A stretch of 64,000 bases of DNA, taken from contig NZ_JAAALE010000009.1 in assembly GCF_009905735.1 (NCBI RefSeq), forward strand, positions 1-64,000. Reading direction: 5' to 3'. Numbering within the stretch: position 1 is the first letter of the stretch; each line of letters opens with the position of its first letter. Below, one piece after another: positions 5,296-32,575 of this stretch. The notes under the pieces are model-generated. The model was not told where the DNA came from. It ran no database searches and worked only from the letters and a program-made list of their open reading frames with translations. Origin of the DNA: Porphyrobacter sp. SLTP. GTDB taxonomy: Bacteria > Pseudomonadota > Alphaproteobacteria > Sphingomonadales > Sphingomonadaceae. The position numbers were made by a program, and so were the translations under genes.

Positions 5296-5307
5296 CTGCT
5301 GCGCTCC

Positions 5308-7871: not shown

Positions 7872-7997
7872 TGCGGGGTCATGCTATCCATCGCGGGTCT
7901 TGACTGTCCCCGAGGGTGTTAGCAAGTGGACAATCAAGCCATATCGCCAGACTGTGCGGCCTGCGCGCCCAATACCAACAAGGATCAGGAAAGCCCC

Positions 7998-9647
7998 ATG
8001 ATCGAACGTGAATCAATGCCCTGCGATGTCGTGATCGTCGGGGGCGGTCCTGCGGGGCTGGCAGCGGCGATCCGCCTGAAGCAGATCAACGCAGACCTCG
8101 AAGTGATCGTGCTGGAGAAAGGCTCCGAAATCGGGGCGCATATCCTGTCAGGCGCGGTGGTTGATCCCAAGGCCTTGGACGAATTGCTGCCCGAATGGCG
8201 CGATCAAGGCTGTCCGATGGCGCAAACCCCCGTGACCGATAACTGGCATTGGGTGCTGTCGAAGACCGGCAAAACCTCGATCCCCCATGCGATCATGCCG
8301 CCGTTGATGAGCAATCACGGCTGCTACACCGGTTCGCTGGGCAACATGACCCGCTGGCTGGCCGAACAGGCCGAAGGGCTGGGCGTGATGGTGTTCCCGG
8401 GCTTCCCGGCCGCCGATGTGATGATCGACGAGGACGGCCGCGTTGCCGGGGTCATCACGCAGGACATGGGCGTTGCCGCCGATGGCAGCCACAAGGGCGA
8501 CTACACCCCCGGCATGGAAATCCACGCCAAGTACACCGTCTTTGCTGAAGGTGCGCGCGGCAACCTGACCAAGCGGATGAAGGCGAAGTATGATCTTGAG
8601 GCGAATTGTCAGCCGCAGGTCTATGGCCTCGGCATCAAGGAATTGTGGGACATTGATCCCAAGAAGCACAAGCCGGGCCGTGTCATCCACACGCAGGGCT
8701 GGCCGCTGACCGAAAGCGAAAGCTGGGGCGGGGGCTTCCTCTACCATCAGGCCAATGGTCAGGTGGCCTTGGGCTTCGTGACCGCGCTCGATTACAAGAA
8801 CCCCTGGGTCTCGCCCTATCAGGAATTCCAGCGCTGGAAGCAGCACCCGGCGATCCGCGAATATCTCGAAGGCGGCAAGCGGGTGAGCTACGGCGCGCGC
8901 GCGATCAACGAGGGCGGCTGGCAGAGCGTGCCCAAGCTCGCCTTTCCGGGCGGCGCTCTGATCGGCTGCGCAGCGGGCTTCGTCAACGTGCCCCGGATCA
9001 AGGGCAGCCACACCGCGATGAAGAGCGGGATGCTGGCGGCTGAAAGCATCGCGGCGGCGATTGCGGCCGGGCATGAAAAGACCGAGTTGATGGACTATGA
9101 CGCCGCCGTGCGCTCCAGCTGGATCGCGACCGAGCTGAAGGTCGTCCAGAACGCCGAGCCTGCGGTCGCCAAGTTTGGCGGTGACATCGGCACGGTGCTG
9201 GCGGGCATCGACATGTGGATGCGCACATTGAAGATCGGCCTGCCGATTTCGATGAAGCACCACAGCGACTACACGATGACCGGCCGCGCTGACCTGTATC
9301 CGAAGATCGACTACCCCAAGCCCGACGGCGTGATCACCTTCGACCGCCTCACCAATGTCGCCTACAGTTACACCAACCACGCGGAGGACCAGCCCTGCCA
9401 CCTGCAGGTGAAGGACCTCGAATTGCAGAAGGTGAGCGAGCTCGGCGTCTTCGGCGGGCCTTCGGCACGCTACTGCCCCGCGGGGGTCTATGAATGGCTG
9501 ACCGACGAGAAGACCGGCGAGCCCAAGTTCCAGATCAACTCGCAGAACTGCGTCCACTGCAAGACCTGCGACATCAAGGACCCCAACCAGAACATCAACT
9601 GGGTGACACCCGAAGGCGGCGGCGGGCCGAACTATCCGAATATGTGA
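7998..9647 (+). CDS. Electron-transfer flavoprotein-ubiquinone oxidoreductase
   Basis: The product is a 549-residue membrane-associated flavoprotein that passes electrons from ETF, reduced by acyl-CoA dehydrogenases, to ubiquinone. The FAD-binding GGGPAG is at residues 15-20. The C-terminal [4Fe-4S] ligands are visible as Cys518, Cys521 and Cys524 (CVHCKTC) with Cys493 (RYCPAG). Length fits the family. I use the ATG at 7998, preceded by AGGAA with good spacing; an open frame extends upstream to 7926 but that extension does not look conserved. It complements the acyl-CoA ligase found earlier in the window. Confidence 0.93.
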   Translation: MIERESMPCDVVIVGGGPAGLAAAIRLKQINADLEVIVLEKGSEIGAHILSGAVVDPKALDELLPEWRDQGCPMAQTPVTDNWHWVLSKTGKTSIPHAIMPPLMSNHGCYTGSLGNMTRWLAEQAEGLGVMVFPGFPAADVMIDEDGRVAGVITQDMGVAADGSHKGDYTPGMEIHAKYTVFAEGARGNLTKRMKAKYDLEANCQPQVYGLGIKELWDIDPKKHKPGRVIHTQGWPLTESESWGGGFLYHQANGQVALGFVTALDYKNPWVSPYQEFQRWKQHPAIREYLEGGKRVSYGARAINEGGWQSVPKLAFPGGALIGCAAGFVNVPRIKGSHTAMKSGMLAAESIAAAIAAGHEKTELMDYDAAVRSSWIATELKVVQNAEPAVAKFGGDIGTVLAGIDMWMRTLKIGLPISMKHHSDYTMTGRADLYPKIDYPKPDGVITFDRLTNVAYSYTNHAEDQPCHLQVKDLELQKVSELGVFGGPSARYCPAGVYEWLTDEKTGEPKFQINSQNCVHCKTCDIKDPNQNINWVTPEGGGGPNYPNM

Positions 9648-9666
9648 TGAGGGATCGCCTATCCCT

Positions 9667-9768
9667 CGTCATTGCGAGCGCAGCGAAGCAATCCAGTATC
9701 GAACGTTCCGTAAAGGCGAAGGGCTCGGTAATGGATTACCGCGTCGCCTGCGGCTCCTCGCAATGACG
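9667..9768. repeat. Palindromic intergenic repeat (type A)
   Basis: An imperfect inverted repeat of about 102 bases: left arm 9667-9695 (begins CGTCATTGCGAGCG, ends GCAATCCA) and right arm 9732-9768 (begins TGGATTACCGCG, ends CGCAATGACG). It fills the gap after the ETF-QO gene. Similar CGTCATTGCGAG palindromes recur between genes in sphingomonads. It may act as a transcript-end hairpin, but has no T tract. Confidence 0.7.
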
Positions 9769-9780
9769 AAGGATTGAAGT

Positions 9781-10149
9781 TTGGCCCACACCCAAACCGC
9801 CCAAGCGATTATCAAACTCGCGCTGCTCGCCACCGTTACGAGCGCAGGTTACGCGTCTGCGGAAGAGCCACTGCCGATGACGTCCGACGATCAGGCCTGC
9901 GAACGCGTCATGTCGGTCCTCGTCGCCAACAGGACTTTCCATGCCGATCAGCTGGCAGGCTGCGATGGCGGCAGGGATGACCAAAACCCCGGATTTTATG
10001 TCCTGCGCGTCAACGGAATCTGCGGCGACCCCCAAGGCTGCGGGACTGTGCTGATGGGCTGGTATGCGGTCGAAGCGTCCACCGGCGCGGTGCACAAATG
10101 GGACGTAGCCGAATGGCAACTCGGCGCGCGGATCGACGGACAGGACTGA
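9781..10149 (+). CDS. Small secreted protein of unknown function
   Basis: The product is 122 residues. A hydrophobic stretch (IIKLALLATVTSAGYASA, about residues 10-27) looks like a signal peptide, so the mature form of about 95 residues is probably periplasmic. It contains four cysteines in the mature part (in QACERVM, LAGCDGG, GICGD and QGCGT), suggesting disulfides. I recognise no family. The start is the TTG at 9781 with GAAGGA just upstream; the next ATG would destroy the signal peptide. Its stop overlaps the ispE start (TGATG). Confidence 0.6.
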   Translation: MAHTQTAQAIIKLALLATVTSAGYASAEEPLPMTSDDQACERVMSVLVANRTFHADQLAGCDGGRDDQNPGFYVLRVNGICGDPQGCGTVLMGWYAVEASTGAVHKWDVAEWQLGARIDGQD

Positions 10150-10946
10150 TGCGCGAAACCGCCTACGCCAAGATCAACCTTGCGCTGCATGTCCGCAGGC
10201 GGCGGGAGGACGGGTATCACGCGCTTGAGACCCTGTTCGCCTTCGTCGATGCGGGCGATGTGCTGACGGCGAAGCCGGCCGCGCAGGACAGCGTTGCCAC
10301 GTTGGGCGAATTTGCGGGCGGGCTCGACAGCCCCTTCGACAACCTCGTGGCCCGCGCGCTCACCACGCTACCGCGCCCGCAGGGCCTCGCGGTGACGCTG
10401 GAGAAGAATCTCCCCGTTGCGGCTGGTCTCGGCGGGGGGTCGGCGGATGCAGGAGCGGTGTTCCGGATCGTCGAGGCGCTCCACGGCCTGCCGGAGGACT
10501 GGCAGGCCCGCGCAGCGAAGCTCGGCGCAGATGTGCCTGCCTGCGTGCTCAGCCACACCCATATTGGGCTCGGCACCGGCACTGAGCATTTGGAGGTCGA
10601 GGATGATCTCGCCGGAACCCCGGTCCTGCTGGTCAACCCGCGCGTGCCGCTTGCGACCGGGCCGGTGTTCAAGGCGTGGGATGGGCAGGATCGCGGCGCT
10701 CTGCCGGAAGGTCCGGCGTCCACAATCGCAAGGGAAGGGCGCAACGACCTCGAAGCTCCCGCGATTTCGCTTTGCCCGGTGATCGCGGAAGTTTTGGCGG
10801 CACTGGCCGAAACCAACCCGTGGCTCGCCCGCATGTCCGGCTCCGGCGCGACCTGTTTTGCGCTCTATGACACCCCCGAGGCCCGCGACGCGGCGGCGGC
10901 CGCGATGCCTGCAGAGTGGTGGACCATGGCGGGGCGGCTGCGGTGA
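10149..10946 (+). CDS. ispE: 4-diphosphocytidyl-2-C-methyl-D-erythritol kinase
   Basis: The product is a 265-residue GHMP kinase of the non-mevalonate isoprenoid pathway, phosphorylating CDP-methylerythritol with ATP in the cytoplasm. The N-terminus (AYAKINLALHV) holds the conserved catalytic lysine region, and the ATP-binding GLGGGSAD loop is at residues 93-100. A C-terminal MSGSGATCFALY glycine motif completes the fold. The start ATG at 10149 overlaps the previous stop, indicating coupling. Confidence 0.93.
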   Translation: MRETAYAKINLALHVRRRREDGYHALETLFAFVDAGDVLTAKPAAQDSVATLGEFAGGLDSPFDNLVARALTTLPRPQGLAVTLEKNLPVAAGLGGGSADAGAVFRIVEALHGLPEDWQARAAKLGADVPACVLSHTHIGLGTGTEHLEVEDDLAGTPVLLVNPRVPLATGPVFKAWDGQDRGALPEGPASTIAREGRNDLEAPAISLCPVIAEVLAALAETNPWLARMSGSGATCFALYDTPEARDAAAAAMPAEWWTMAGRLR

Positions 10947-10962
10947 GATTCTATCCTTCACC

Positions 10963-11027
10963 CCGTTCGCATCGAGCGAAGTCGAGAGGCTGGGGCAGGG
11001 TGTCTCGACTTCGCTCGACACGAACGG
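10963..11027. repeat. Palindromic intergenic repeat (type B)
   Basis: A 65-base inverted repeat with left arm CCGTTCGCATCGAGCGAAG and a right arm ending TCGACACGAACGG. The arms pair nearly perfectly around a short GC-rich centre. It occupies the gap between ispE and the amidohydrolase gene. The TCGAGCGAAGTCGAGA core is a common intergenic palindrome of sphingomonads and relatives. Confidence 0.7.
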
Positions 11028-11036
11028 AGTTAGGTT

Positions 11037-11753
11037 GTGAGTGAGGCTTACCGCCAACTCGGCACGCCCACCCCCGGCGGGATCGTCTGCACCGCAGACC
11101 ATGCCTCCAATGCCGTGCCGCCCGACATCACCCTCGGCATCCCCGCGCAGCTGCTCCACGAGCACATCGCCGTCGATATCGGCACCGCGGCCATCGCCGA
11201 ACGGTTGGCGCAGTGCCATGCCATCCCCGCCCACATCGCTGCCGTCAGCCGCCTCGTCTGCGACCTCAATCGCGAGGAAACCGCTCCCGGCCTCGTCCCC
11301 GAAGCCAGTGACGGCCACCCGATCCCCGGCAATGTCGTTGCAGACCGCGAAGCGCGGCTCGCCCGCTTCCACCGACCCTACCATACCGCGCTGGAGCATT
11401 GGCTGGCCGCCGCCGAGCCCGCGCTGATCCTCTCGCTCCACAGCTTCACCCCGCGCCTCGCCAGCCGGGACGAGCCGCGCCCGTGGCAGGTGGGCGTGCT
11501 CTACAATCAGGACGACCGCGCCGCGCGCATCGCCATCCCGCTGCTGGCGACAGAAGGGCTGAACGTGGGCGACAATCTCCCCTATTCAGGGCGCGATCTC
11601 AATTACACCATGAACCGTCACGCCGAAGCAAAAGGCCGCCCTTACCTCGGGATCGAGCTGCGCCAAGACCTTGTTGCAACCCCCGAAACCCACACCCGTT
11701 GGGCGGCATTGTTGGCGAATATTGCGCAAAGGGTTGCGTCAGCGCTCGCCTGA
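11037..11753 (+). CDS. N-formylglutamate amidohydrolase family protein
   Basis: The product is a 238-residue cytoplasmic metal-dependent hydrolase of the HutG2/N-formylglutamate deformylase superfamily, splitting N-formyl-glutamate-like amides. Recognisable elements are CTADHASNAVP near residue 20 (metal-binding Asp/His), SRLVCDLNRE near 75 and ILSLHSFTPR near 138. The start is the GTG at 11037, overlapping the end of the type B repeat spacer. No other histidine-degradation gene is near, so the physiological substrate may differ; this is inference. Confidence 0.8.
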   Translation: MSEAYRQLGTPTPGGIVCTADHASNAVPPDITLGIPAQLLHEHIAVDIGTAAIAERLAQCHAIPAHIAAVSRLVCDLNREETAPGLVPEASDGHPIPGNVVADREARLARFHRPYHTALEHWLAAAEPALILSLHSFTPRLASRDEPRPWQVGVLYNQDDRAARIAIPLLATEGLNVGDNLPYSGRDLNYTMNRHAEAKGRPYLGIELRQDLVATPETHTRWAALLANIAQRVASALA

Positions 11754-11795
11754 AGGCAGGGGACGTTTCACAAATTGCCTTCAATGGGAAATCTT

Positions 11796-13517
11796 ATGTC
11801 GCAGAAGTTTGACAAGTCGAAGCTCCCCAGCCGCCACGTGTCGGTCGGCCCGGAGCGCGCGCCGCACCGCTCCTATTACTACGCGATGGGCATGACCGAG
11901 GAAGAGATCGCCGCGCCCTTCGTCGGCGTGGTCAGTGCGGGCAACGACTCGGCTCCCTGCAACACCACCCTGAACGCGCAGGCCGATATCTGCCGCGAGG
12001 GCGTGATCGCAGGCGGCGGCACCCCGCGCCGGTTCAACACCATCACCGTCACCGATGGCATCGCGATGGGCCACCAGGGGATGAAGTCCTCGCTCATCAG
12101 CCGCGAGATCATTGCGGATTCGGTTGAAGTATCGGTCAGAGGCCATTGTTATGACGCGCTGGTCGGCTTTGCGGGCTGCGACAAGAGCCTGCCCGGTATG
12201 ATGATGGCGATGCTCCGCCTGAACGTGCCGTCGATCTTCGTCTATGGCGGCTCGATCCTCCCCGGCACGCACCGCGGTAATGATGTGACCGTGGTCGATG
12301 TGTTTGAAGCCGTGGGCCAGTTCGCGGCCGGCAATTGCCCGCTGACCGAGCTGATCGCCTTGGAAAAGGTCGCCTGCCCCGGCCACGGTGCCTGCGGCGG
12401 TCAGTTTACCGCCAACACCATGGCCTGCGTCGGCGAGGCGATTGGCCTCAGCCTGCCCAACAGCAACATGGCCCCCGCGCCTTACCGCTCGCGTGATGAT
12501 ATCGCGGTGGCGGCGGGCAAGCAGGTGATGGAACTCGTCGCCCGCAACCTGCGCCCGCGCGACATTTGCACCCGCGAGGCTTTCATGAACGCCGCACGCG
12601 TGGTCGCGGCCACCGGCGGCTCGACCAATGCAGCGCTCCATCTGCCCGCGATGGCGAGCGAGGCGGGGATTCATTTCGATCTGTTCGACGTTGCTGAAGT
12701 CTTCAAATCAACGCCTTACATTGCGGACTTGAAGCCCGGTGGGAAGTATGTCGCCAAGGACATGCACGAAGCGGGCGGGGTCTATATGGCGATGAAGACG
12801 CTGCTCGACGGCGGGTTCATCGATCCCAACCCGATCACCGTCACCGGCAAGACCATCGGCGAGAACCTCGAAGAGATCACCTGGAACCCCGATCAGAAGG
12901 TGTTCTACGATGTGAAGACCCCGATCACGAGGACCGGCGGCGTCGTGGGCCTCAAGGGTAGCCTCGCGCCTGACGGGGCCATCGTGAAGGTCGCCGGGAT
13001 GGCGCGCCTGCAATTCTCCGGCCCGGCGCGGGTGTTCGATTGCGAGGAAGATGCCTTCGCCGCGGTTGAAAAGCGCGACATTGCTGAGGGCTGCGTGATC
13101 GTGATCCGCTACGAAGGGCCCAAGGGTGGCCCGGGTATGCGCGAGATGCTCTCCACCACGGCCGCGCTCTATGGGCAGGGCATGGGCGAGAAGGTTGCCC
13201 TCATCACCGACGGGCGCTTCTCGGGCGCCACGCGCGGCTTCTGCATCGGCCATGTCTGCCCCGAGGCCGCCGACGGCGGGCCGATCGGGCTGATCGAGGA
13301 TGGCGATATCATCAGCATCGATGCCGAGGCGGGCACCATCGAACTCGACGTGCCCGAGGACGTGCTGGCCGAGCGGCGCAAGGCCTGGCAGCCGCGCACC
13401 AATGACTACCAGTCGGGCGCCTTGTGGCGTTACAGTCAGGTCGTTGGCCTCGCACGCTACGGTGCCATCACCCATCCCGGCGCAAAGGCGGAGACCCATG
13501 TGTTTGCGGATATCTAG
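11796..13517 (+). CDS. ilvD: Dihydroxy-acid dehydratase
   Basis: The product is a 573-residue IlvD/Edd-family dehydratase, converting 2,3-dihydroxy-isovalerate and its methylvalerate analogue to the 2-oxo acids in valine and isoleucine synthesis. Iron-sulfur ligand candidates are Cys55 (SAPCN), Cys128 (GCDKS) and Cys200 (HGACGG), the three-cysteine layout of the [2Fe-2S] class. I use the ATG at 11796 with GGGAA upstream; the ATG at 11784 and TTG at 11775 are alternatives in frame. Its last 20 bases overlap the start of the next gene in another frame. Confidence 0.93.
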
Positions 13518-13845
13518 CACGCTTGCGGCCTTGGCTGTGCTGGCAGGCTGCGGCGCGGCGGAAAGTCCGCCGCCGCCGGGCGACGAGGTCGAATGCGCGA
13601 TCGGCGCAGGTGCGGCGCTCTCGCCGGTCTGCACGCTGGAGCTGGTCGGGAATGACGTCATTCTCCACCATCCCGACGGCGGTTTTCGGCGCTTGACCCG
13701 CGATCCGGCCACCGGCGCGCTTGCGCCGCGTGACGGGGCCGAGGTGCTGGTGCCCGAACAGGGCGCGGCGGGCGCGGAGGCCTTTGCCATCGGGGCAGAC
13801 CGCTATCTGATCCCGCGCACGCTCCTCGATCCGCCGCCAAAGTGA
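13498..13845 (+). CDS. Small lipoprotein of unknown function
   Basis: The product is 115 residues with a short signal sequence and lipobox LAGC, placing the lipidated cysteine at residue 18. The mature part is Pro-rich at first and then contains [30 protein letters not shown], a plausible small beta domain. The ATG lies inside the 3' end of ilvD (20-base overlap, different frame), and its stop overlaps the GTG start of nnr, so it sits in a coupled chain. I do not recognise a family. Confidence 0.7.
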
Positions 13846-15230
13846 CCGCCGCACAGGTCCTTACCGCCGCCCAGATGCGCGCTGCCGAACAGGCGCTGTT
13901 CGATGCGGGCACCAGCGTTTCGGAACTGATGGAGATCGCCGCAGGCGGCGCGGCCGAGTGGATCCGCCGGATCGCCGCCGGACGCGCGGTGACGGTGCTG
14001 TGTGGCCCCGGCAACAACGGCGGAGACGGCTATGTCATCGCCCGCCGCCTGCGTGAGGCGGGCAATGCGGTGGCAGTGATCGCTCCGCTCGACCCTGCAA
14101 CAGACGCCGCCAAAGAGGCGCGGCGGCGGTGGGACGGGCCGGTCAGCACGGCCGGAGGGGCCGGAGCTGATGTGTTCGTCGACTGCCTGTTCGGTTCCGG
14201 GCTCGCGCGGCCCCTGATCGCCGAGCACGCGTTGCTGCTGCGCGATCTGGCGGCAAGGCATCGCTACACGGTGGCGGTCGATGTGCCCTCGGGCATTGCC
14301 AGTGATAGCGGCGCGGTGCTGAACGAGCGGCTGCCCGACTTTGATCTGACCCTCGCGCTGGGCGCGTGGAAGTTTGCGCATTGGAGCCTGCCGGGCCGGG
14401 CGTTGATGGGACAGATGCGGCTTGTGCCGATCGGAATCGCACCGTTGGAGGGTGCAGCGCAGCTGGTCGAACGGCCGCGCCTCAGCGCCCCCGCGGCGGA
14501 TAGTCACAAATATCGCCGTGGGTTGCTTGGCATCGTGACCGGCGCCATGCCGGGGGCGAGCCTTCTGGCTACGGCTGCCGCCCAGCACTCGGGCGCGGGT
14601 TATGTGAAGCTGCTCGCCCCTCACGTCGATCCGCGCACGCCGCCCGATGTGGTGACGGACACTGCGCCGCTCGCCGAAGCGCTGGCCGATCCGCGTATGG
14701 CTGCGGTGTTGGTCGGGCCAGGGCTGGGCCGTGATGACGCGGCGCGCGAAAGGCTCGAAGCCGCGCTGGCGCAGGCCCCCGCACTGGTGCTGGATGCAGA
14801 CGCGCTGATGCTGCTTACCCCCGCGCTGCTCACCCGTGCTGTTCCCATGCTTGCCACCCCGCATGACGGCGAGCTTGAGGCCTTGTGCCGCAGTTTTGGC
14901 GTCATCGCGGAGACCCGCCGTGACCGGGCTTTGGCATTGGCGAGGGTCAGCGGGATGGTTGTGCTGGCCAAAGGGCCGGACAGCATCGTCGCTGCGCCCG
15001 ATGGCCGCCTCGCGCTCGGGCAGCCTGCGCCGAGCTGGCTGTCGGTGGCCGGAACGGGCGATGTGCTGGCCGGGATTGCCGCGAGCCGGATGGCGAACGG
15101 GGCCGATCCCTTTACCGCCGCCTGTGAGGCGCTGTGGCTCCACGGCGAGGCCGCACAGCGGGCGGGGGCGGCTTTCACGCCGACGCAGCTTGCCGAACGG
15201 GTGTCCGAGGCGCTAGCGGCCTGCTTGTGA
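13842..15230 (+). CDS. nnr: Bifunctional NAD(P)H-hydrate epimerase / ADP-dependent dehydratase
   Basis: The product is a 462-residue fusion that repairs damaged NAD(P)H hydrates. The N-terminal YjeF epimerase domain shows GPGNNGGDGY at residues 55-64; the C-terminal ribokinase-like dehydratase domain shows GTGD at 404-407 and AKGPDSIVAAPDGR before it. Length is normal for the fused form. The start is GTG at 13842, overlapping the lipoprotein stop, and the stop overlaps the GTG of the next gene. Confidence 0.92.
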   Translation: MTAAQVLTAAQMRAAEQALFDAGTSVSELMEIAAGGAAEWIRRIAAGRAVTVLCGPGNNGGDGYVIARRLREAGNAVAVIAPLDPATDAAKEARRRWDGPVSTAGGAGADVFVDCLFGSGLARPLIAEHALLLRDLAARHRYTVAVDVPSGIASDSGAVLNERLPDFDLTLALGAWKFAHWSLPGRALMGQMRLVPIGIAPLEGAAQLVERPRLSAPAADSHKYRRGLLGIVTGAMPGASLLATAAAQHSGAGYVKLLAPHVDPRTPPDVVTDTAPLAEALADPRMAAVLVGPGLGRDDAARERLEAALAQAPALVLDADALMLLTPALLTRAVPMLATPHDGELEALCRSFGVIAETRRDRALALARVSGMVVLAKGPDSIVAAPDGRLALGQPAPSWLSVAGTGDVLAGIAASRMANGADPFTAACEALWLHGEAAQRAGAAFTPTQLAERVSEALAACL

Positions 15231-16423
15231 CCTTATCTGAACCCATTATCCGCCTCGCCGCCAAGGGCGACGGCGTGACCGTCTCTGGCCGCCATATCGC
15301 GGGCGGCGTGCCTGGCGACATGGTGGACGCAGCTGGCACGATCACGCCGGGCCCACACCACATCGCCCCCGCCTGCCGCCATTTCGGCGTGTGCGGCGGG
15401 TGCCTGTTGCAGCACGCAGACGACACGGCGCTCGCCGAGTTTGTCGAGGGCCGGGTGGTCAACGCTGCGCGGGGGCAAGGGCTGGAACCGGCCGTATTGC
15501 TCCCCGTCCATCTCTCCCCGCCGCAGACGCGCCGCCGCGCGGGCCTCCACGGGCTGCGCACGGCCAGGGGCGCGGTCTTGGGCTACCGCGAGGGCGGTTC
15601 GCACCGTGTGGTCGATCTGGCCGAATGCCCGGTGCTGCACCCCGCGCTGGCCGCGCTGATCGCGCCGCTCCGGCGGTTTGTGGCGGCGCACGGGCCAAAA
15701 GGGATGGTCGGAATCGATCTGACCTTGGCGGATCAGGGCGTGGAAGCGGGCCTGATGCACTTCCCGATCGAAGGGCTTGGCCCGACCGAGGCGACGCTCG
15801 ATTTCGCGCGCGATCAGGGGCTTGCAAGGCTTACCATAGACCAAGGCTATGGTCCTGAGACCCTTTGGGAGCCTGAACCCGCGACGGTGACATTGTCAGG
15901 CGTGCCAGTGAGCTTGCCCTCGGGCGCCTTCCTTCAGGCGGCTGCTGATGCGGAGCGCGTGATGGTCGCCGATGCTGCGGAATGGTTGGCGGGTGCTGGG
16001 GTCGTTGCGGATTTGTTTGCTGGGCTTGGCACTTTTGCCTTTGCGCTGCGGGGAGGACGCAAGGTGCTGGCGGTCGAAGCGGAACGCGCCGCGCATCTCG
16101 CTTGCAAGGCGGCCGGGGCGATGATTGGGGGGCGGGTGTTGGCGCTCCACCGCGATCTGTTCCGAAGCCCGCTTCAGCCCGAGGAATTGAACCGCTTCGA
16201 CGCCATTCTGCTCGATCCGCCGCGGGCTGGTGCCCGTGCTCAAGTCGCGGAAATCGCCGCGAGCACGGTCGCCCGGGTGGTCTATGTCAGCTGCAACCCC
16301 TCAAGCTGGGCGCGCGATGCCGCTGTGCTGGCAGAGGCAGGGTTCCGGCTTGCGAAGCTGCGCCCGGTTGGCCAATTCCGCTGGTCGACCCACGTGGAAT
16401 TGGTAAGCTATTTCGAGCGTTAA
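15227..16423 (+). CDS. TrmA/RumA-family RNA (uracil-5-)-methyltransferase
   Basis: The product is a 398-residue class I SAM methyltransferase modifying uridine in rRNA or tRNA. Iron-sulfur ligands typical of RumA are visible at Cys50, Cys56 and Cys59 (CRHFGVCGGC) and Cys134. The SAM-binding DLFAGLGTFA, the DPPRAGA motif and the catalytic Cys356 (VSCNPSSW) are all present. The GTG start at 15227 overlaps the nnr stop. The stop shares a TTAA with the stop of the convergent XrtA hydrolase gene. Which RNA position is methylated cannot be read from the sequence. Confidence 0.85.
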   Translation: MTLSEPIIRLAAKGDGVTVSGRHIAGGVPGDMVDAAGTITPGPHHIAPACRHFGVCGGCLLQHADDTALAEFVEGRVVNAARGQGLEPAVLLPVHLSPPQTRRRAGLHGLRTARGAVLGYREGGSHRVVDLAECPVLHPALAALIAPLRRFVAAHGPKGMVGIDLTLADQGVEAGLMHFPIEGLGPTEATLDFARDQGLARLTIDQGYGPETLWEPEPATVTLSGVPVSLPSGAFLQAAADAERVMVADAAEWLAGAGVVADLFAGLGTFAFALRGGRKVLAVEAERAAHLACKAAGAMIGGRVLALHRDLFRSPLQPEELNRFDAILLDPPRAGARAQVAEIAASTVARVVYVSCNPSSWARDAAVLAEAGFRLAKLRPVGQFRWSTHVELVSYFER

Positions 16424-17211
16424 GCGCGCAAGCTTTCTAGAATTCGCGCTTCCAGCCACGCGCGGTGCTCCGGCTCGACATAGGCATGGCCTGCGCCTTC
16501 GCAGCGGTAGATGCGCGGGTCGTTCCTGTCCCACGCGGCTTCGAACACTTGCGCGGTGCGGTCTGCCGTCGCGACGAGGATGCGCACCTGCCCGGTGAAG
16601 CTCGCCAGCCCGGCGGCCATGTCCTGCGCGAGGCTCGACGGTGGCGGGGGCGGGCGCAGGGCGTGGACAATACCGCGCGCCAGCTTGCCAAGGTTTACAC
16701 CTCCGCCCAGCAACCGCATGACCTCACGCGGGTTTTTCAGCTTTTCCAGATAGCGCGCGCGAATTGCGGCCGGGGGCGGCGTGTCGTCGGCCGCGCCTTG
16801 GCTTTCGTCCTGCTCGATTGTCCAGGGGTTCGACAGCACCAGCCCATCGCAGCCTGCACCGCCCGCCAGCATCAGCGCAGACGCCGCATCACAATTGCCG
16901 AAAGCGACCACCCGCGCGAGCTGCGGTGTCATCGCGCGGAAAGCATCGACGGCGCAGGCAATGTCCTTGGCAGATTGGCGGAACCCGCGGTTTTGGCCCT
17001 CGCTGTCGCCAATCCCGCGCCTGTCGAACCGGAACACCGGAAAGCCTGCCCCGGCGATCCGCGCGGCCATGTCGGCCTGTCCGCCGAACGCGCCCGAGCG
17101 GATCTCGTTGCCGCCGCTGACAATCAGCAGCCCGGTCGTCCCCGGCGCGGTGTCGAGCGTGCCGGCCAGCGTCAGACTGCCGCAACCGAAGGTGTGAGAA
17201 AGCCGCGTCAT
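16420..17211 (-). CDS. Hydrolase 1, exosortase A system-associated
   Basis: The product is a 263-residue alpha/beta-hydrolase matching in order and motifs the hydrolase-1 family found only in XrtA exopolysaccharide loci. It contains SGGNEIRSGAFGGQ near residue 32, an RFDRRGIGDS strand-turn at about 61-70, and a nucleophile-elbow sequence GNCDA at 105-109 where Cys107 replaces the usual serine. The substrate is unknown. It is the last gene of a four-gene minus-strand unit and overlaps its upstream neighbour by ATGA. Confidence 0.85.
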   Translation of the reverse strand: MTRLSHTFGCGSLTLAGTLDTAPGTTGLLIVSGGNEIRSGAFGGQADMAARIAGAGFPVFRFDRRGIGDSEGQNRGFRQSAKDIACAVDAFRAMTPQLARVVAFGNCDAASALMLAGGAGCDGLVLSNPWTIEQDESQGAADDTPPPAAIRARYLEKLKNPREVMRLLGGGVNLGKLARGIVHALRPPPPPSSLAQDMAAGLASFTGQVRILVATADRTAQVFEAAWDRNDPRIYRCEGAGHAYVEPEHRAWLEARILESLRA

Positions 17212-17897
17212 GGCGCTGAATTTCCGATACTTTCGACGATAATCGCGGCGAGACGATCGGCCTGCCCAGCGTCTTCGTCAGGCTCGGCGCGCAGCCATAG
17301 GCCGGGGCCTCCGACCATGCTTTGGGCAATGTCCATCTGGCCCGGGGCGAGCGCCGGTTCGGCGGTTTCGAGTTCGCGGAACATCGCCGCCCCGATGGGC
17401 CAGCCGCCCAGCACCAGACCGGACTCGCGACCTTGCGCCATAAGCCCCTCAGACGTTTCGGCCATTCCGGCCTCTCGCGCCGCAATGGTACGCGCGCGGA
17501 TCATGCCGCGCAGCAGCTTGGGGCCGGTTTGTGCCGTATAGTGCCAACCGGGCAGCGAAGCCGGCGCGACAAGCGCGCCCGCCCGGATCGCCAGCACATG
17601 GGTCGCGCCCAGCGCTTCGCCCGCAGCGGCCATGCCCGCGCGCCAGCTTGCCAGTGTTTGATCTTCAAGCGGAGCAAGGCTCTCGTTGCAACCCGGCAGA
17701 TCGGGCAGCAGCGTGTCGATCCCCGCCGCATCCAGCCGCCGCATTACCTCGATGGTGAACCGGCGCAGCTTGTTCGCTTCATCGAACCATGCCGGGCACA
17801 CCAGCACCCGGACCGTGCGGCCGCGATCGAAGGCGACCAGCAATTCCTCAGACGGAGATCCACCGTCGGGCCCCGGATGGTTCCACGTGAAAATCAC
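17208..17897 (-). CDS. Alpha/beta-hydrolase-like protein of the XrtA locus
   Basis: The product is 229 residues. The N-terminal half reads like an alpha/beta-hydrolase core (VRVLVCPAWFDEANKLRR, TLLPDLPGCNES near residue 65, then a THVLAIRAGALVAP strand) but the nucleophile elbow is not clear: the position expected for GxSxG reads IRAGA. It corresponds in location to hydrolase 2 of XrtA loci. It may be a catalytically altered partner of hydrolase 1; that is inference. It overlaps hydrolase 1 by four bases. Confidence 0.65.
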   Translation of the reverse strand: MIFTWNHPGPDGGSPSEELLVAFDRGRTVRVLVCPAWFDEANKLRRFTIEVMRRLDAAGIDTLLPDLPGCNESLAPLEDQTLASWRAGMAAAGEALGATHVLAIRAGALVAPASLPGWHYTAQTGPKLLRGMIRARTIAAREAGMAETSEGLMAQGRESGLVLGGWPIGAAMFRELETAEPALAPGQMDIAQSMVGGPGLWLRAEPDEDAGQADRLAAIIVESIGNSAP

Positions 17898-17930
17898 CCG
17901 AGAGGCACCCTGGAGGAGGTCAAGCCCGAC

Positions 17931-18227
17931 CTAGCGCGGGTTGAGCTTTGCCCGCGCAAACGCCAGCAGGCCACCATAAGTCTCAAGCATCTCGCCATCG
18001 ACATCGTCATCCTCGATCACGATGCCGAGCCGGTCTTCCATTTCGGTCAGCAATCCGGCGACCGCCATCGAGTCCAGCTCGGGAAGATGGCCGAACAACC
18101 CCGATTCCGGACCGAAGGCAGCGGCCTGTGCCGGGTCGAGCCCCAGAACATCGGCGATCAACGCCTTGAGTTCGCTATCGAGCGCGGCTTCGCCTGCTGC
18201 GCTATCGATGTTCGGAATGGTGGTCAT
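17931..18227 (-). CDS. Acyl carrier protein of the XrtA locus
   Basis: The product is a 98-residue acidic carrier protein. The phosphopantetheine attachment site is Ser53 in the motif ELDSMAV, with the usual acidic helix (LTEMEDRLGIVIEDDD) after it. It would carry an acyl or aminoacyl group on a thioester arm for the neighbouring ligase, acyltransferase or hydrolases. It belongs to the minus-strand group between the acyltransferase and the hydrolases. Confidence 0.85.
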   Translation of the reverse strand: MTTIPNIDSAAGEAALDSELKALIADVLGLDPAQAAAFGPESGLFGHLPELDSMAVAGLLTEMEDRLGIVIEDDDVDGEMLETYGGLLAFARAKLNPR

Positions 18228-18318
18228 TTATGCCCAAATCCCTGTGTTTGGCCGTGGCGGCGGGGCTTAGCCATGCGCGGGGCTGGGTGCAAGCATTGCG
18301 GGCCCGCACCCGCGCGCC

Positions 18319-19305
18319 TCAGGCCCCGTTATGGCGCAGCAGGCGCTTGGCGAGCGGGGGCCAGCTTTTCGGCTGTGCCGGGTCGAGACAATCGACGCGG
18401 AAACGTGGACGCACATCCTCCATCCAGTCGGCCTTGTAGCCCTGATCGCCGGTGCCGAAGTCGACAAGGTCGACGTGGTCCACATCGATCACGTGCTGGA
18501 ACAGCGCGGCGGTCAGCGTGGTGCCGGCCGATAACGGCTTGTGGCTCTCAAGATGGGCGAGCTTATGAATGTAAGCAATTGAATTTTCGACAGTCCAGCA
18601 TTGCGCTGCGACCGCGATGCCTTCGGCTCGGGCCACACCCAAGCGCAGCCGTCCCGCAGTGCCTTCCGCCTCGGCGAAGGCACGCAGCATGGCGGGTTGA
18701 TCCTCGGCGGGTTTCCAGCTGGCAGCATAGATCGCTTCGTAATCGGCCCAGACGTCCGCGTCGAAGTGGGTGAGCACCTCCACCTCGACCTTCTTCGCCT
18801 TGCGTTTCAGCGTCGTGCGCAGGGCGCCGGGGCGGCTCTCCCAATATTCGGCAAAGCTGCGCCCGCGCACGGGCAGGATGTGGTTGATATCGCAAGGTTC
18901 CACCGCAACCTTCCAGCCAACGTTGCGGAACGCACGGGCGAGCCGCTCGGCTGACCCATCCTCGCCCGGCACGGGTTCGAGCGTCACCCGATATCCGCGC
19001 GTTTTCAGCTGCCGGGCAATCGCTTCGAGCAGCCGGTCACCCGCTGCGCCGGCCGGAGCAAGCTCGCGCCAGGTAAAGCTGTACCAGTTGCGCAAGGGAA
19101 TGATTCGCCCGCCATCTTCGGTCAAGGCGAGGGCGGCGGCGCTATCGGCGTCGCTCGCCATGGCGATCAATGGAACGAGCCCGGTCTCCGCCAGCAGCGC
19201 AAACCACTCGGCACGGTCGAACGGCGCGGGAGTGCCGCTGCCTGCTCCTTTGGCGCTCAACGCTTGCAAGACGTTAACGCTATCGTGATACCGCGCTTCG
19301 ATCAC
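18319..19305 (-). CDS. GNAT/CelD-like acyltransferase of the XrtA locus
   Basis: The product is about 328 residues with a C-terminal FemAB/GNAT-like domain: YWESRPGALRTTLKRKAKK near the middle, then VAAQCWTVENSIAYIHKLAH and HVDLVDFGTGDQGYKADW, a signature shared with BcsL/CelD-type acyltransferases of polysaccharide loci. I place the start at a GTG at 19305; no ATG precedes a convincing site and the frame stays open further upstream, so this is tentative. It is divergent from the acyl-CoA ligase, with starts about 10 bases apart. The acyl donor may be the carrier protein encoded next to it (inference). Confidence 0.75.
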   Translation of the reverse strand: MIEARYHDSVNVLQALSAKGAGSGTPAPFDRAEWFALLAETGLVPLIAMASDADSAAALALTEDGGRIIPLRNWYSFTWRELAPAGAAGDRLLEAIARQLKTRGYRVTLEPVPGEDGSAERLARAFRNVGWKVAVEPCDINHILPVRGRSFAEYWESRPGALRTTLKRKAKKVEVEVLTHFDADVWADYEAIYAASWKPAEDQPAMLRAFAEAEGTAGRLRLGVARAEGIAVAAQCWTVENSIAYIHKLAHLESHKPLSAGTTLTAALFQHVIDVDHVDLVDFGTGDQGYKADWMEDVRPRFRVDCLDPAQPKSWPPLAKRLLRHNGA

Positions 19306-19314
19306 TGTAAAAGA

Positions 19315-20874
19315 ATGCTCCTGACTATGCCGCACCAGCCTGATCCCGCCTTGCGCCCGCTTGACCACCTTGCCGAACTGGCGGGGGCGGCGGGGCGTGG
19401 GGAGAACCCGGCGCTGGTGCTGCGCGAGGGTACGCTTAACCACAATCAGTTAAGACAGCGTGTCGCGCGGCTCGCCGGATGGCTGGCCGAGATGGTGCCG
19501 GACAAGGGTGCGCGTGTGGCAAGCTGGGCGGCGAAGGGCGAGATCACCTGCCTGCTGCCGCTCGCTACCGCGCGGGCTGGGCTGGTGCATGTGCCGATCA
19601 ACCCGCTGCTGAAACGCGCGCAGGCAGCGCATATCCTCGCCGATAGCGGGGCGAAGCTGCTGATCGGGACGGGCTCGCGGCTTGCCTCGCTGGAGCCGGG
19701 CGATCTTCCGCCGGGTTGCGCCGCGCTGGGTGAGGCTGAAGCGCTGGCAGCCGCTGAGGCTGCTGCGCGAGAATTGGGGCCGTCCGAGGCTGATCCTGGG
19801 GAGCTGGCAGCGATCCTCTATACCTCGGGCTCGACCGGTCGCCCGAAGGGCGTCATGCTGAGCCATGCCAATATGTGGCTCGGCGCGGTGAGCGTGGCGC
19901 ATTATCTCGGGCTGGCCGATGACGACGTGACGCTCGCCGTGCTGCCGCTGTCCTTTGATTACGGGCAGAACCAGCTTTTGAGCACCTGGTATGCGGGTGG
20001 TTGTGTGGTGCCGCTCGATTTCCTGTTCCCCAAGGATGTCGCCAAAGCCTGCGCGAAGCATGGGGTAACGACGCTCGCAGCCGTTCCGCCCCTGTGGGTG
20101 CAACTGACCGAGATCGACTGGCCCGCGGAGGCGTGCGCGCCTTTGCGACGGCTCACCAATAGCGGCGGGGCCTTGACGGTGGATCTGGTGCGATCCTTGC
20201 GCGGCCTGTTTCCCGACGCGCGCCTGTTCCCGATGTACGGCCTGACCGAGGCGTTTCGGTCGACCTTCCTTGATCCCAAGCTGGTTGATTCGCATCCAAC
20301 ATCAATGGGTAAGGCGATCCCCTTCGCAGAGATTCTCGTGATCAATGATGCAGGTGATATCGCCGCTGATGACGAGGAGGGCGAGCTGGTCCATTGCGGC
20401 CCACTGGTCGCGCAGGGCTATTGGCAGGACCCGGAGCGCACGGCGGAGCGCTTCAAGCCTGCACCGGCCGCATCGGCCTATGGCGGGATGGCGGTGTGGT
20501 CGGGCGACCGGGTGCGGCGCTCGGCGGAGGGGCTGCTCTATTTCGCCGGACGGCGCGATGCGATGATCAAGAGCGCAGGCAACCGCATCAGCCCGCAGGA
20601 AATCGAGGAAGCCGCGCTGGCCTCAGGTCTGGCTGCCGAAGCGGTCGCGCTGGGCGTGGCTCATCCGCGCTTGGGCCAAGCGGTGCATCTGGTGGTGCGC
20701 GGCGCCGCAGACGAAGCGGCGCGGGCGGAATTGCCCAAGCGGCTCCAGCGCGACCTGCCAAATTTTATGCAGCCCCAGCACATCCATTGGCGCGAGACGA
20801 TGCCCTTGAACCCCAACGGCAAGATCGACCGCACCGCCTTGCAGGCCCAGCTCAATCAGGAATTTGCCCCATGA
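19315..20874 (+). CDS. Acyl-CoA ligase (AMP-forming), exosortase A system-associated
   Basis: The product is a 519-residue ANL adenylating enzyme. The YTSGSTGRPKG motif is at residues 169-179, with YGLTEAF and the terminal NGKIDR lysine also present. In XrtA loci this family always accompanies the PLP decarboxylase and carrier protein, and probably loads a carboxylic or amino acid onto the carrier. Start is ATG 19315 or ATG 19327; neither has a strong ribosome site. The end overlaps the decarboxylase by ATGA. Confidence 0.9.
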   Translation: MLLTMPHQPDPALRPLDHLAELAGAAGRGENPALVLREGTLNHNQLRQRVARLAGWLAEMVPDKGARVASWAAKGEITCLLPLATARAGLVHVPINPLLKRAQAAHILADSGAKLLIGTGSRLASLEPGDLPPGCAALGEAEALAAAEAAARELGPSEADPGELAAILYTSGSTGRPKGVMLSHANMWLGAVSVAHYLGLADDDVTLAVLPLSFDYGQNQLLSTWYAGGCVVPLDFLFPKDVAKACAKHGVTTLAAVPPLWVQLTEIDWPAEACAPLRRLTNSGGALTVDLVRSLRGLFPDARLFPMYGLTEAFRSTFLDPKLVDSHPTSMGKAIPFAEILVINDAGDIAADDEEGELVHCGPLVAQGYWQDPERTAERFKPAPAASAYGGMAVWSGDRVRRSAEGLLYFAGRRDAMIKSAGNRISPQEIEEAALASGLAAEAVALGVAHPRLGQAVHLVVRGAADEAARAELPKRLQRDLPNFMQPQHIHWRETMPLNPNGKIDRTALQAQLNQEFAP

Positions 20875-22097
20875 AGCCCGTCGGCCCGATCCCCGCTGGT
20901 TACGAGACGATCGCAGGCGAACTCGCCATTGGCGGCAAGCGCGCGAGCGAATTGGTCGCCGAGGCGGGGCGCACCCCGCTGTTCGTCTATTCGCGCGCGC
21001 ACCTGGATGCCCGCGTGGCGGAGTTGCGCGCGGCGCTGCCGACGCGGGTAGGGCTGAACTACGCGGTGAAGGCGAACCCGAACCTCGCCGTTATCGGCCA
21101 TATGGCGCCGCTGGTGGACGGTTTCGACATCGCCTCCTCGGGCGAGCTTGCCCTGTGCGTGGCCGTGGGGATCGACCCGCGCCGCATCAGCTTTGCCGGG
21201 CCGGGCAAGCGGGACGATGAGCTGGAGGCCGCGATTGCCGCAGGCGTGACGCTCAATTGCGAAAGCGAGGGTGAGGGCGCGCGGGCGATCGCCATCGGCC
21301 AGCGGCTTGGCAAGGCGCCGCGCATCGCGATCCGGGTAAACCCCTCCTTTGAAATGAAGGGCTCGGGGATGAAGATGGGCGGCGGGGCCAAGCAATTCGG
21401 CGTCGATGCCGAGCGCGTGCCCGAACTGGCCCGAAACCTGATCGGCGAAGGGGCCGAGTGGCGCGGCCTCCACATCTTCACCGGCAGCCAGACGCTGAGC
21501 GCGGACGCGATCATCGAAGCACAGGGCAATGTGCTGGAACTGGCCGCCGAACTTGCCGACGCGATTGGCCACGGCCTGCCCAAGCTGAACATGGGCGGGG
21601 GACTGGGGATTCCGTACTTCCCAGGCGATACGCCGGTCGATCTGGCGCGCGTCGGTGCGGCTTTGTCCGAACGTGTGGCGGATTTGCCGCCCGTCCTCGC
21701 GGATACCGAGCTGTGCATCGAACTCGGGCGCTATCTCGTCGGCGAGGCGGGCGTGTATCTGACCCGCGTTATTGACCGCAAGGTTAGCCACGGCGTGACT
21801 TACCTGGTGACGGACGGCGGGTTGCATCACCAGCTCGCCGCTTCGGGCAATTTTGGTACCGTGGTGCGGCGCAACTATCCTTCGGCCATTGCAACGCGTT
21901 ACGGGGCAGAGGTGACCGAGGAGGTCAACATCGTCGGCTGCCTGTGCACCCCGCTGGACCGGCTCGCCGACAATGCCGCGATGCCTCACGCTGACGTGGG
22001 CGATCTGGTCGCGGTGTTTTGCGCCGGGGCTTACGGCGCGACCGCCTCACCCAGTGCTTTCCTCGGTCACGGCCCGGCGGCCGAACTGCTGGTCTGA
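20871..22097 (+). CDS. PLP-dependent decarboxylase, exosortase A system-associated
   Basis: The product is a 408-residue fold-type III decarboxylase of the ornithine/diaminopimelate/arginine class. The PLP lysine is Lys67 (NYAVKANPN), the SSGE segment follows at about 88-91, and the substrate/PLP motif ELGRYLVG and a C-terminal CTPLDRL also fit. It would decarboxylate a basic amino acid or a carrier-bound analogue; the substrate is not determined. It is coupled to the ligase (ATGA) and separated by a 198-base gap from the export genes. Confidence 0.9.
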   Translation: MKPVGPIPAGYETIAGELAIGGKRASELVAEAGRTPLFVYSRAHLDARVAELRAALPTRVGLNYAVKANPNLAVIGHMAPLVDGFDIASSGELALCVAVGIDPRRISFAGPGKRDDELEAAIAAGVTLNCESEGEGARAIAIGQRLGKAPRIAIRVNPSFEMKGSGMKMGGGAKQFGVDAERVPELARNLIGEGAEWRGLHIFTGSQTLSADAIIEAQGNVLELAAELADAIGHGLPKLNMGGGLGIPYFPGDTPVDLARVGAALSERVADLPPVLADTELCIELGRYLVGEAGVYLTRVIDRKVSHGVTYLVTDGGLHHQLAASGNFGTVVRRNYPSAIATRYGAEVTEEVNIVGCLCTPLDRLADNAAMPHADVGDLVAVFCAGAYGATASPSAFLGHGPAAELLV

Positions 22098-32564: not shown

Positions 32565-32575
32565 GCGGCAAGACC

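What the first reader, a model, noticed from the sequence alone, without database searches (positions are those of the whole stretch)
16420..22097. Carrier-protein amine/acyl module of unknown product in the XrtA locus
Six genes form a self-contained chemistry set: adenylating ligase, acyl carrier protein, PLP decarboxylase, acyltransferase and two hydrolase-like proteins, in two divergent units sharing one control region. This looks like a pathway that activates an amino acid or similar acid, decarboxylates it to an amine-bearing group, and transfers it. The product, perhaps a substituent on the exopolysaccharide or on sorted proteins, is not established as far as I know.
Basis: partly seen in the sequence, partly recalled or inferred. 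Interest (0 to 1): 0.72.

Follow-up and report, generated by a model that had tools for sequence, protein, structure and literature searches.

The report
Amine-tag pathway beside exosortase A
Six bacterial genes next to a surface-sugar and protein-sorting locus look like an antibiotic-style pathway that loads an acidic amino acid by its side chain onto a carrier protein, removes its main carboxyl group, and hands the resulting amine-bearing unit to something, probably on the cell surface.

Summary
The six genes are real. NCBI knows three of them (ligase, decarboxylase, hydrolase 1) as exosortase A-associated families without assigned chemistry. The tools suggest one. The decarboxylase is nearest to BtrK, the glutamyl-ACP decarboxylase of butirosin (221 bits; best diaminopimelate decarboxylase 139), and shares the CTPxD loop with BtrK and SbnH. 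The ligase is nearest to VinN in its substrate-binding region and keeps VinN's Asp230, Ser299 and Arg331; seven other AMP-forming ligases of the same genome lack the Asp and the Arg. Two relatives of the ligase sit beside glutamate mutase, the source of VinN's substrate. So the core looks like VinN/VinL/VinO: acidic amino acid, side-chain thioester on ACP, α-decarboxylation, β-alanyl- (or GABA-) S-ACP. The GNAT has a FemX/MprF aminoacyltransferase fold. Hydrolase 1 has a cysteine nucleophile; hydrolase 2 has Arg there. In 398 genomes 27 of 30 decarboxylase genomes have XrtA, but 8 of 35 XrtA genomes lack the decarboxylase, and 12 of 19 in a second draw. It is an optional addition to the locus, most likely a polysaccharide decoration. 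Exact amino acid, transferase and acceptor are not shown.

The parts
16420..17211 (-). hydrolase 1 (TIGR03100): alpha/beta hydrolase with a Cys at the nucleophile elbow; Cys107, Asp217 and His242 invariant in 42 rows; candidate acyltransferase or thioesterase that ties the module to the XrtA locus (inference)
   Evidence: 211 bits; motif, invariant columns; model pLDDT 83, generic alpha/beta hydrolase folds; 27 of 27 with module and XrtA, 0 of 11 others
17208..17897 (-). hydrolase 2 (weakly TIGR03101-like): alpha/beta-hydrolase-like probable pseudoenzyme, Arg105 at the nucleophile elbow; possible partner of hydrolase 1 (inference)
   Evidence: 31.6 bits, below cut-off; Arg in 64 of 64 rows
17931..18227 (-). 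stand-alone acyl carrier protein, phosphopantetheine site in LPELDSMAV
   Evidence: PF00550, 2.2e-6
18319..19305 (-). GNAT protein with a FemX/MprF aminoacyltransferase fold (GTG start at 19305); accessory
   Evidence: PF13480; pLDDT 90.9; Sba18, FemX, MprF, A-PGS among the best PDB folds
19327..20874 (+). ATP-dependent ligase (TIGR03098) with most of the VinN beta-amino-acid signature; predicted to load the side-chain carboxylate of an acidic amino acid onto the ACP
20871..22097 (+). PLP decarboxylase (TIGR03099), BtrK/VinO-like; predicted to remove the alpha-carboxylate of the ACP-bound amino acid; PLP Lys67 in YAVKAN, CTPLD loop
22230..34474 (+). adjoining XrtA/exopolysaccharide locus (export, chain length, kinase, ATPase, deacetylase TIGR03006, FemAB TIGR03019, glycosyltransferase, exosortase A, amidotransferase TIGR03108): probable user of the module's product (inference)

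Best explanation
The module is a side-chain-activating, carrier-protein-bound decarboxylation pathway of the butirosin/vicenistatin/fluvirucin type, used for surface-polymer decoration. Step 1: the VinN-like ligase adenylates the side-chain carboxylate of an acidic amino acid (most likely L-aspartate here, as no glutamate mutase E was found in the window or the fetched XrtA-type loci; L-glutamate or 3-methylaspartate possible) and puts it on the ACP as a thioester. Step 2: the BtrK/VinO-like PLP enzyme removes the alpha-carboxylate on the carrier, giving beta-alanyl-S-ACP (or GABA- or 3-aminoisobutyryl-S-ACP), a unit with a free primary amine. Step 3: the unit is transferred to an amine or hydroxyl of the XrtA-locus exopolysaccharide or its lipid-linked precursor, by the Fem-type GNAT where present and/or through hydrolase 1 (Cys acyl-enzyme) with hydrolase 2 as inactive partner. 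Shown: the genes, closest relatives, signature residues, predicted folds, gene pairing and co-occurrence. Inferred: all reactions. Least certain: which amino acid, which transferase, which acceptor.
For: Decarboxylase: best solved relative is BtrK (221 bits), against 139 for the best diaminopimelate decarboxylase. CT(P/S/T/G)xD loop in 40 of 40 module-type and BtrK-like loci, CE(S/T)xD in 15 of 15 lysA-type loci. Tree: lysA against BtrK, SbnH and this family, 100/100. BtrK acts on Glu-S-BtrI (PMC7857480, passages). Ligase: in the A4-A5 region VinN is the best PDB match (94.8 bits; CmiS6 75.9, linear gramicidin synthase 72.6), gap-free over the loop; VinN D230/F231/S299/R331 are D/Y/S/R here (VinN residues from PMC11253843, passages). 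D and R are in 33 of 33 fetched loci with a ligase match over 70% of its length and in 0 of 7 other AMP-forming ligases of this genome. Context: ligase relatives lie beside methylaspartate mutase E in L207 (ligase, mutase, decarboxylase) and L230 (ligase, MutL, MutE, B12 subunit). VinO needs the thioester; FlvN uses Asp (PMC11284099, passages). GNAT: top PDB folds are Sba18/Sbb17, FemX and MprF. Locus: 27 of 30 and 7 of 7 over-cut-off decarboxylase genomes have XrtA; a polysaccharide deacetylase and FemAB are in all 35 XrtA genomes searched for them.
Against: No enzyme was assayed. VinN Lys330 is Phe here, and six of 19 XrtA-type ligases have Ala where VinN has Phe231 and this ligase has Tyr, so the amino acid may differ between lineages. 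The fork that joins BtrK but not SbnH to this family has only 81/94, and BtrK and SbnH are long branches. A window-type GNAT is missing in 12 of 27 module+XrtA genomes, so it cannot be the general transferase. 8 of 35 and 12 of 19 XrtA genomes lack the decarboxylase. In L230 no decarboxylase match lies beside the ligase. In L182 the core lies beside a type III polyketide synthase in a genome without an XrtA match, so the same core can serve another purpose. An ACP match was found in 19 of 20 XrtA-type loci but in 0 of 20 outside loci (a small protein, possibly missed). The seven control ligases are the loci handed out for this genome, not all its ligases.
Confidence: 0.62

Rival explanations
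1. Same chemistry, different customer: the aminoacyl-ACP goes to a small secondary metabolite or lipid, and the place beside XrtA reflects co-regulation or history only.
For: A ligase match lies in the same fetched stretch as a BtrK-like decarboxylase in 14 of 20 outside loci; in L182 the core sits by a type III polyketide synthase in a genome without an XrtA match; many XrtA genomes do without the module.
Against: 27 of 30 and 7 of 7 over-cut-off decarboxylase genomes carry XrtA; hydrolase 1 is present in 27 of 27 genomes with both and 0 of 11 with only one; L184 and L207, outside XrtA loci, still lie near glycosyltransferase and deacetylase genes.
Confidence: 0.2
2. Free beta-alanine supply: hydrolase 1 is a thioesterase that releases beta-alanine from the ACP for pantothenate and CoA.
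For: No aspartate 1-decarboxylase panD in 30 of 30 module genomes, this one included (the same search finds it in 8 of 14 control genomes); hydrolase 1 has invariant Cys, Asp and His.
Against: 7 of 8 XrtA genomes without the module also lack panD, so other routes must exist; three module genomes have no hydrolase 1 match; linkage to the exopolysaccharide locus is unexplained. The base rate of panD in the same families was not measured.
Confidence: 0.06
3. Ordinary reading of the family names: an acyl-CoA ligase for fatty acids plus a diaminopimelate/ornithine-type decarboxylase making a polyamine.
For: NCBI names (acyl-CoA ligase; pyridoxal-dependent decarboxylase); the second-best NCBIfam match of the decarboxylase is lysA at 241 bits, below its cut-off of 298.
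Against: The Glu of the CE(S/T)xD loop that marks lysA is absent; the tree separates the family from lysA; the ligase has the amino-binding Asp and the VinN Arg that seven other AMP-forming ligases of the genome lack; a dedicated ACP lies in the divergent unit.
Confidence: 0.06
4. The aminoacyl unit supplies the amine to which exosortase A attaches sorted proteins (see the section on the most novel reading).
For: Fem-type aminoacyltransferases build sortase's amine acceptor in Gram-positive bacteria (recalled); FemAB TIGR03019 is matched in all 35 XrtA genomes among the 38 searched, 33 over cut-off; hydrolase 1 appears only where module and XrtA are both present.
Against: 8 of 35 and 12 of 19 XrtA genomes lack the decarboxylase; stretches around XrtA in the first eight keep other locus genes.
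Confidence: 0.05

Closest known systems
VinN-VinL-VinO of vicenistatin, and the FlvN route of fluvirucin B2
   Same: Stand-alone ANL ligase with Asp/bulky residue/Ser/Arg signature and short beta13-beta14 loop, stand-alone ACP, PLP decarboxylase; relatives of the ligase lie beside glutamate mutase as in vicenistatin
   Different: No polyketide synthase, protecting ligase VinM or acyltransferase VinK among the six genes; VinN Lys330 is Phe; no glutamate mutase E found in the window; sits in an exopolysaccharide/exosortase locus of Proteobacteria; two alpha/beta-hydrolase-fold proteins of unknown role. VinO itself was not in the sequence sets searched
BtrJ-BtrI-BtrK of butirosin (BtrH as acyltransferase)
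   Same: Decarboxylase is closest in sequence to BtrK; ACP-bound acidic amino acid decarboxylated; aminoacyl group then handed on (in butirosin to an amino sugar; recalled)
   Different: BtrJ is an ATP-grasp ligase (recalled), here an ANL ligase; the transferase fold is Fem/GNAT rather than BtrH (recalled); no hydroxylase among the six genes
SbnH, FigC/FslC, AcsE decarboxylases of citrate siderophores
   Same: Alanine-racemase-fold PLP enzymes that decarboxylate amino acids whose side chain is acylated (PMC7857480, passages); SbnH shares the CTPxD loop
   Different: Substrate is a citryl amino acid, no carrier protein named; lower similarity (SbnH 129 bits)
FemX/FemA, MprF/A-PGS and streptothricin Sba18/Sbb17 aminoacyltransferases
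   Same: Predicted fold of the module GNAT; aminoacyl transfer to peptidoglycan precursor, lipid or amino-sugar antibiotic (partly recalled)
   Different: Those use aminoacyl-tRNA; here an aminoacyl-ACP is proposed; 9-17% sequence identity only
NCBIfam TIGR03098/03099/03100 (exosortase A system-associated)
   Same: Direct family membership of ligase, decarboxylase and hydrolase 1
   Different: These families are named by context; their names assign no substrate or product

Membership tests
TIGR03098 / TIGR03099 / TIGR03100 (XrtA-associated ligase, decarboxylase, hydrolase 1) | score above the curated cut-off | tested here: met
   629/592, 583/478, 211/168 bits
TIGR03101 (hydrolase 2) | score above the curated cut-off | tested here: not met
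   31.6 against 202.75 bits; comparable place near the module and same Arg elbow as over-cut-off members
VinN-type beta-amino-acid adenylating enzymes | Asp230 equivalent that binds the amino group | tested here: met
   absent in 7 of 7 other own-genome AMP-forming ligases looked at
VinN-type beta-amino-acid adenylating enzymes | bulky residue at 231 and Ser299 | tested here: met
   Tyr and Ser in the window; but Ala at 231 in L184-L187, L189, L195
VinN-type beta-amino-acid adenylating enzymes | short beta13-beta14 loop with Arg331 | tested here: met
   gap-free alignment TEAFR / TECKR; Arg in 33 of 33 loci
VinN-type beta-amino-acid adenylating enzymes | Lys330 | tested here: not met
   Phe here
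VinN-type beta-amino-acid adenylating enzymes | loads Asp or 3-methylaspartate through the side-chain carboxylate | not testable with these tools
   needs an in vitro loading assay
BtrK/VinO ACP-dependent decarboxylases | closest sequence relative with solved structure is BtrK | tested here: met
BtrK/VinO ACP-dependent decarboxylases | falls with BtrK and not with lysA in a tree | tested here: met
   100/100 for the split from lysA; only 81/94 for the fork with BtrK but without SbnH
BtrK/VinO ACP-dependent decarboxylases | requires the ACP thioester as substrate | not testable with these tools
   an ACP gene was found in 19 of 20 fetched XrtA-type loci
Diaminopimelate decarboxylase (LysA) | acidic residue in the CE(S/T)xD substrate loop | tested here: not met
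   CTPLD here; CES/CET in 15 of 15 lysA-type loci
Fem/MprF aminoacyltransferases | Fem-type GNAT fold | tested here: met
   model pLDDT 90.9; Foldseek E 5.9e-14 (Sba18) and 2.2e-13 to 1.2e-12 (FemX); a prediction, not a solved structure
Fem/MprF aminoacyltransferases | use of aminoacyl-tRNA | not testable with these tools
   sequence cannot tell tRNA from ACP donors
Catalytic alpha/beta hydrolase (hydrolase 2) | nucleophile at the elbow | tested here: not met
   Arg in 64 of 64 aligned rows

The most novel reading that the evidence does not exclude
The module makes the acceptor amine for exosortase A. A beta-alanyl or GABA group placed on the exopolysaccharide or its lipid carrier would provide the primary amine to which XrtA transfers PEP-CTERM proteins after cleavage, as the Fem-built peptide bridge does for sortase A (recalled). 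That would explain why exopolysaccharide and protein-sorting genes travel together; XrtA genomes without the module would use another aminoacyl donor (for example aminoacyl-tRNA) through FemAB TIGR03019.
Probability: 0.06. Interest if true: 0.92.

Novelty: new variant of a known kind. Interest (0 to 1): 0.62.

Why it matters
Exosortase A loci are found in many environmental Proteobacteria, yet neither the structure of their polysaccharide nor the group to which sorted proteins are joined is settled, as far as I know (PMC11980579, passages, says only that some new moiety may be left attached). This work turns three context-named families into a concrete, cheap-to-test reaction sequence. If right, chemistry described for a few antibiotics serves as a regular part of bacterial surface chemistry, and it predicts a positively charged aminoacyl decoration that can be looked for directly.

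Tried and rejected
Fatty acyl-CoA ligase reading: rejected on the A4/A5 residues with own-genome controls. Diaminopimelate or ornithine decarboxylase reading: rejected on the loop motif and tree. Beta-alanine for CoA as main role: not excluded; panD is missing in 30 of 30 module genomes but also in 7 of 8 XrtA genomes without the module. Module needed for all XrtA sorting: rejected, 8 of 35 and 12 of 19 XrtA genomes lack the decarboxylase. GNAT as the universal transferase: rejected, 15 of 27. The first tblastn for hydrolase 2 recovered few divergent members and was redone from profile coordinates. A search for decarboxylase columns that follow the Tyr/Ala split of the ligase gave none under the filter used. 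Pfam scans of some ORFs around L203, L205, L208, L213 and L219 showed no common theme. A first script used a wrong ligase frame, corrected.

Literature: searches (all 10 allowed). Exosortase + decarboxylase + acyl-CoA ligase: 0 papers. TIGR03098/03099/03100/03101: one paper, naming only a TIGR03100-like hydrolase. In one search, among the 40 of 49 papers listed, no row holds exosortase or PEP-CTERM together with butirosin or vicenistatin; one archaeal genome paper holds exosortase and methylaspartate. Haft 2006 (PMC1569441) was searched for five words only; ligase, decarboxylase, hydrolase and acyl carrier do not occur in its main text. Other papers were seen as search listings or passages only. 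The library lacks most subscription papers, so this does not show that the idea is unpublished.
Full report
What is there. The six ORFs are intact. NCBIfam places ligase, decarboxylase and hydrolase 1 above cut-off in TIGR03098, TIGR03099 and TIGR03100; hydrolase 2 is a weak relative of TIGR03101 (31.6 bits, cut-off 203); the carrier protein matches PF00550 and the fourth protein PF13480. The genes stand directly before an XrtA locus. The genome is close to Erythrobacter/Porphyrobacter: the best named locus, Erythrobacter ramosus, is 98% identical in the decarboxylase. In most relatives the ligase ATG at 19327 and the GNAT GTG at 19305 are the conserved starts, with 21 bp between them, and no sigma-70-like site was seen in 18900-19750. 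The divergent arrangement is real; a control region separate from coding sequence is hardly there.

Decarboxylase. Among PDB sequences the best matches are the two BtrK sequences (221 bits), then diaminopimelate decarboxylases (139 bits and less) and SbnH (129). In the loop that in LysA carries the substrate-binding Glu (role recalled), the window has CTPLD; 40 of 40 module-type and BtrK-like loci have CT followed by P, S, T or G, and 15 of 15 lysA-type loci have CES or CET. An IQ-TREE of 59 rows separates lysA (16 rows) from everything else with 100/100 and makes the XrtA family one group (21 rows, 100/99); the fork joining BtrK but not SbnH to the family has 81/94, and BtrK and SbnH are long branches. 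According to PMC7857480 (passages) BtrK turns Glu-S-BtrI into GABA-S-BtrI, and SbnH and FigC act on citryl amino acids. So the family sits among decarboxylases whose substrate carries an acylated or thioester-bound side chain.

Ligase. With the whole protein, linear gramicidin synthase ranks first because two of its domains add up. With the A4-A5 region alone VinN is first (94.8 bits), then CmiS6 (75.9) and linear gramicidin synthase (72.6). VinN residues that PMC11253843 (passages) discusses for beta-amino acid selection are D230, F231, S299, K330 and R331; here they are D, Y, S, F and R in an alignment without a gap over the loop. D and R are present in 33 of 33 fetched loci whose ligase match covers at least 70% of the query and in none of seven other AMP-forming ligases of the same genome that were handed out as loci. 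The Tyr is Ala in six of 19 XrtA-type loci, so pocket size may differ between lineages. Two relatives of this ligase lie beside glutamate mutase. In L207 the order is ligase, methylaspartate mutase E (PF06368, 1.3e-141), BtrK-like decarboxylase, then a methyltransferase/PIG-L GlcNAc-deacetylase-like protein, with a glycosyltransferase nearby. In L230 it is ligase, MutL, MutE (2.8e-115), B12-binding subunit, with no decarboxylase match beside it. A search with the L207 MutE found MutE only in these two among the window and the 230 loci held. In vicenistatin the mutase is held to make (2S,3S)-3-methylaspartate, VinN's substrate; VinO decarboxylates it as thioester; FlvN uses Asp; a mutase mutant makes a product supposedly derived from Asp (PMC11284099, passages). 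As no mutase lies near the window module, Asp is my first choice of substrate, Glu the second.

Transfer. The GNAT gives a confident model (pLDDT 90.9). Its nearest solved folds are the aminoacyl-tRNA-dependent streptothricin peptide synthases Sba18/Sbb17, FemX, MprF and A-PGS, all aminoacyltransferases, although sequence identity is 9-17%. By sequence nothing in the PDB matched usefully. A window-type GNAT is present in 15 of 27 genomes with module and XrtA, in 0 of 3 with module only and 0 of 8 with XrtA only; of the 15, eleven lie next to or close to the module, two about 15 kb away and two on another contig. Hydrolase 1 has an invariant Cys at the nucleophile elbow with invariant Asp and His (42 rows) and a generic alpha/beta hydrolase fold; hydrolase 2 has Arg there in 64 of 64 rows. 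I infer that hydrolase 1 is an acyltransferase or proofreading thioesterase and hydrolase 2 its partner.

Distribution. In 398 genomes drawn from the phylum, the decarboxylase is over its cut-off in 30 and XrtA in 35, both in 27 (Fisher p about 1.5e-31; kinship is not corrected for, and 19 of the 30 are of the window's own family). In 289 genomes drawn from the class, the decarboxylase is over cut-off in 7, all with XrtA, but XrtA in 19, so 12 of 19 lack the decarboxylase (the draws share some genomes). In the first 30 plus the 8 XrtA-only genomes: ligase (E to 1e-120) 30 of 30 and 1 of 8; hydrolase 1 in 27 of 27 with both and 0 of 11 with one; FemAB TIGR03019 matched in all 35 XrtA genomes, 33 over cut-off, and 0 of 3 others; deacetylase TIGR03006 in 36 of 38. 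In stretches around exosortase of the eight XrtA-only genomes other locus genes were seen, in varying number, but no module apart from a 37-bit ligase fragment in L229. Among the 20 fetched XrtA-type loci, ligase is local in 19, ACP in 19, hydrolase 1 in 16. Thus ACP-ligase-decarboxylase is the core, hydrolase 1 appears only where XrtA is present too, and the whole is an optional addition to the locus.

Mechanism and limits. The most likely sequence is: acidic amino acid, side-chain adenylate, side-chain thioester on ACP, alpha-decarboxylation, omega-aminoacyl-S-ACP, transfer to the exopolysaccharide. I put about 0.7 on the steps up to the aminoacyl-ACP and about 0.5 on the polysaccharide as acceptor. 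The two deacetylase contexts (TIGR03006 in XrtA loci; PIG-L in L207) suggest that a sugar amine is freed and then aminoacylated, as in butirosin where the unit goes to an amino sugar (recalled). Against: L182 shows the core beside a type III polyketide synthase in a genome without an XrtA match. Beta-alanine supply for CoA remains a minor rival because panD is absent in 37 of 38 genomes.

Novelty. The gene families and their XrtA link are known from NCBI's names. The assignment to VinN/VinO/BtrK-type chemistry and a Fem-fold transferase turned up in none of my literature searches, within a library that lacks most subscription papers. I therefore rate it a new variant of a known kind: antibiotic-style omega-aminoacyl-ACP chemistry placed in a polysaccharide and protein-sorting locus.

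Noticed in passing
whole genome G000 and 37 related genomes: The aspartate 1-decarboxylase panD (TIGR00223) is absent in 37 of 38 genomes searched, this one included; the source of their beta-alanine is unknown to me.
   Followed up: partly
L230 (G626) 7841-12400, minus strand: A VinN-signature ligase in a row with MutL, methylaspartate mutase E and a B12-binding subunit, in an XrtA genome without a TIGR03099 match at E 1e-85 or better; an aminotransferase lies further upstream.
   Followed up: partly
L207 (G299) 7798-13959, minus strand: Row of ligase, methylaspartate mutase E, BtrK-like decarboxylase and a fused methyltransferase/PIG-L protein: could be a 3-aminoisobutyryl decoration cassette.
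   Followed up: partly
L182 (G653) 4522-9994: ACP-ligase-decarboxylase core beside a type III polyketide synthase and an FAD/NAD oxidoreductase in a genome of the window's family without an XrtA match.
   Followed up: no
L208 (G453) 10338-13063: Downstream of a ligase-decarboxylase pair lie a B12-binding radical SAM protein and an aminoglycoside 3-N-acetyltransferase-family protein (PF02522).
   Followed up: no
window ligase Tyr216 counted from the ATG at 19315 (VinN Phe231 equivalent): XrtA-type ligases split into Tyr and Ala types at this pocket position; six of 19 fetched XrtA-type loci have Ala, perhaps a different amino acid.
   Followed up: partly
window 32399-34474: TIGR03108 asparagine-synthase-like amidotransferase in the XrtA locus; a related gene follows the module decarboxylase in L185 and L195. 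Possibly amidates an acidic sugar or the same product.
   Followed up: no
window 16420-16423: Hydrolase 1 and the ORF on the other strand (15134-16423) converge and overlap by 4 bases.
   Followed up: no
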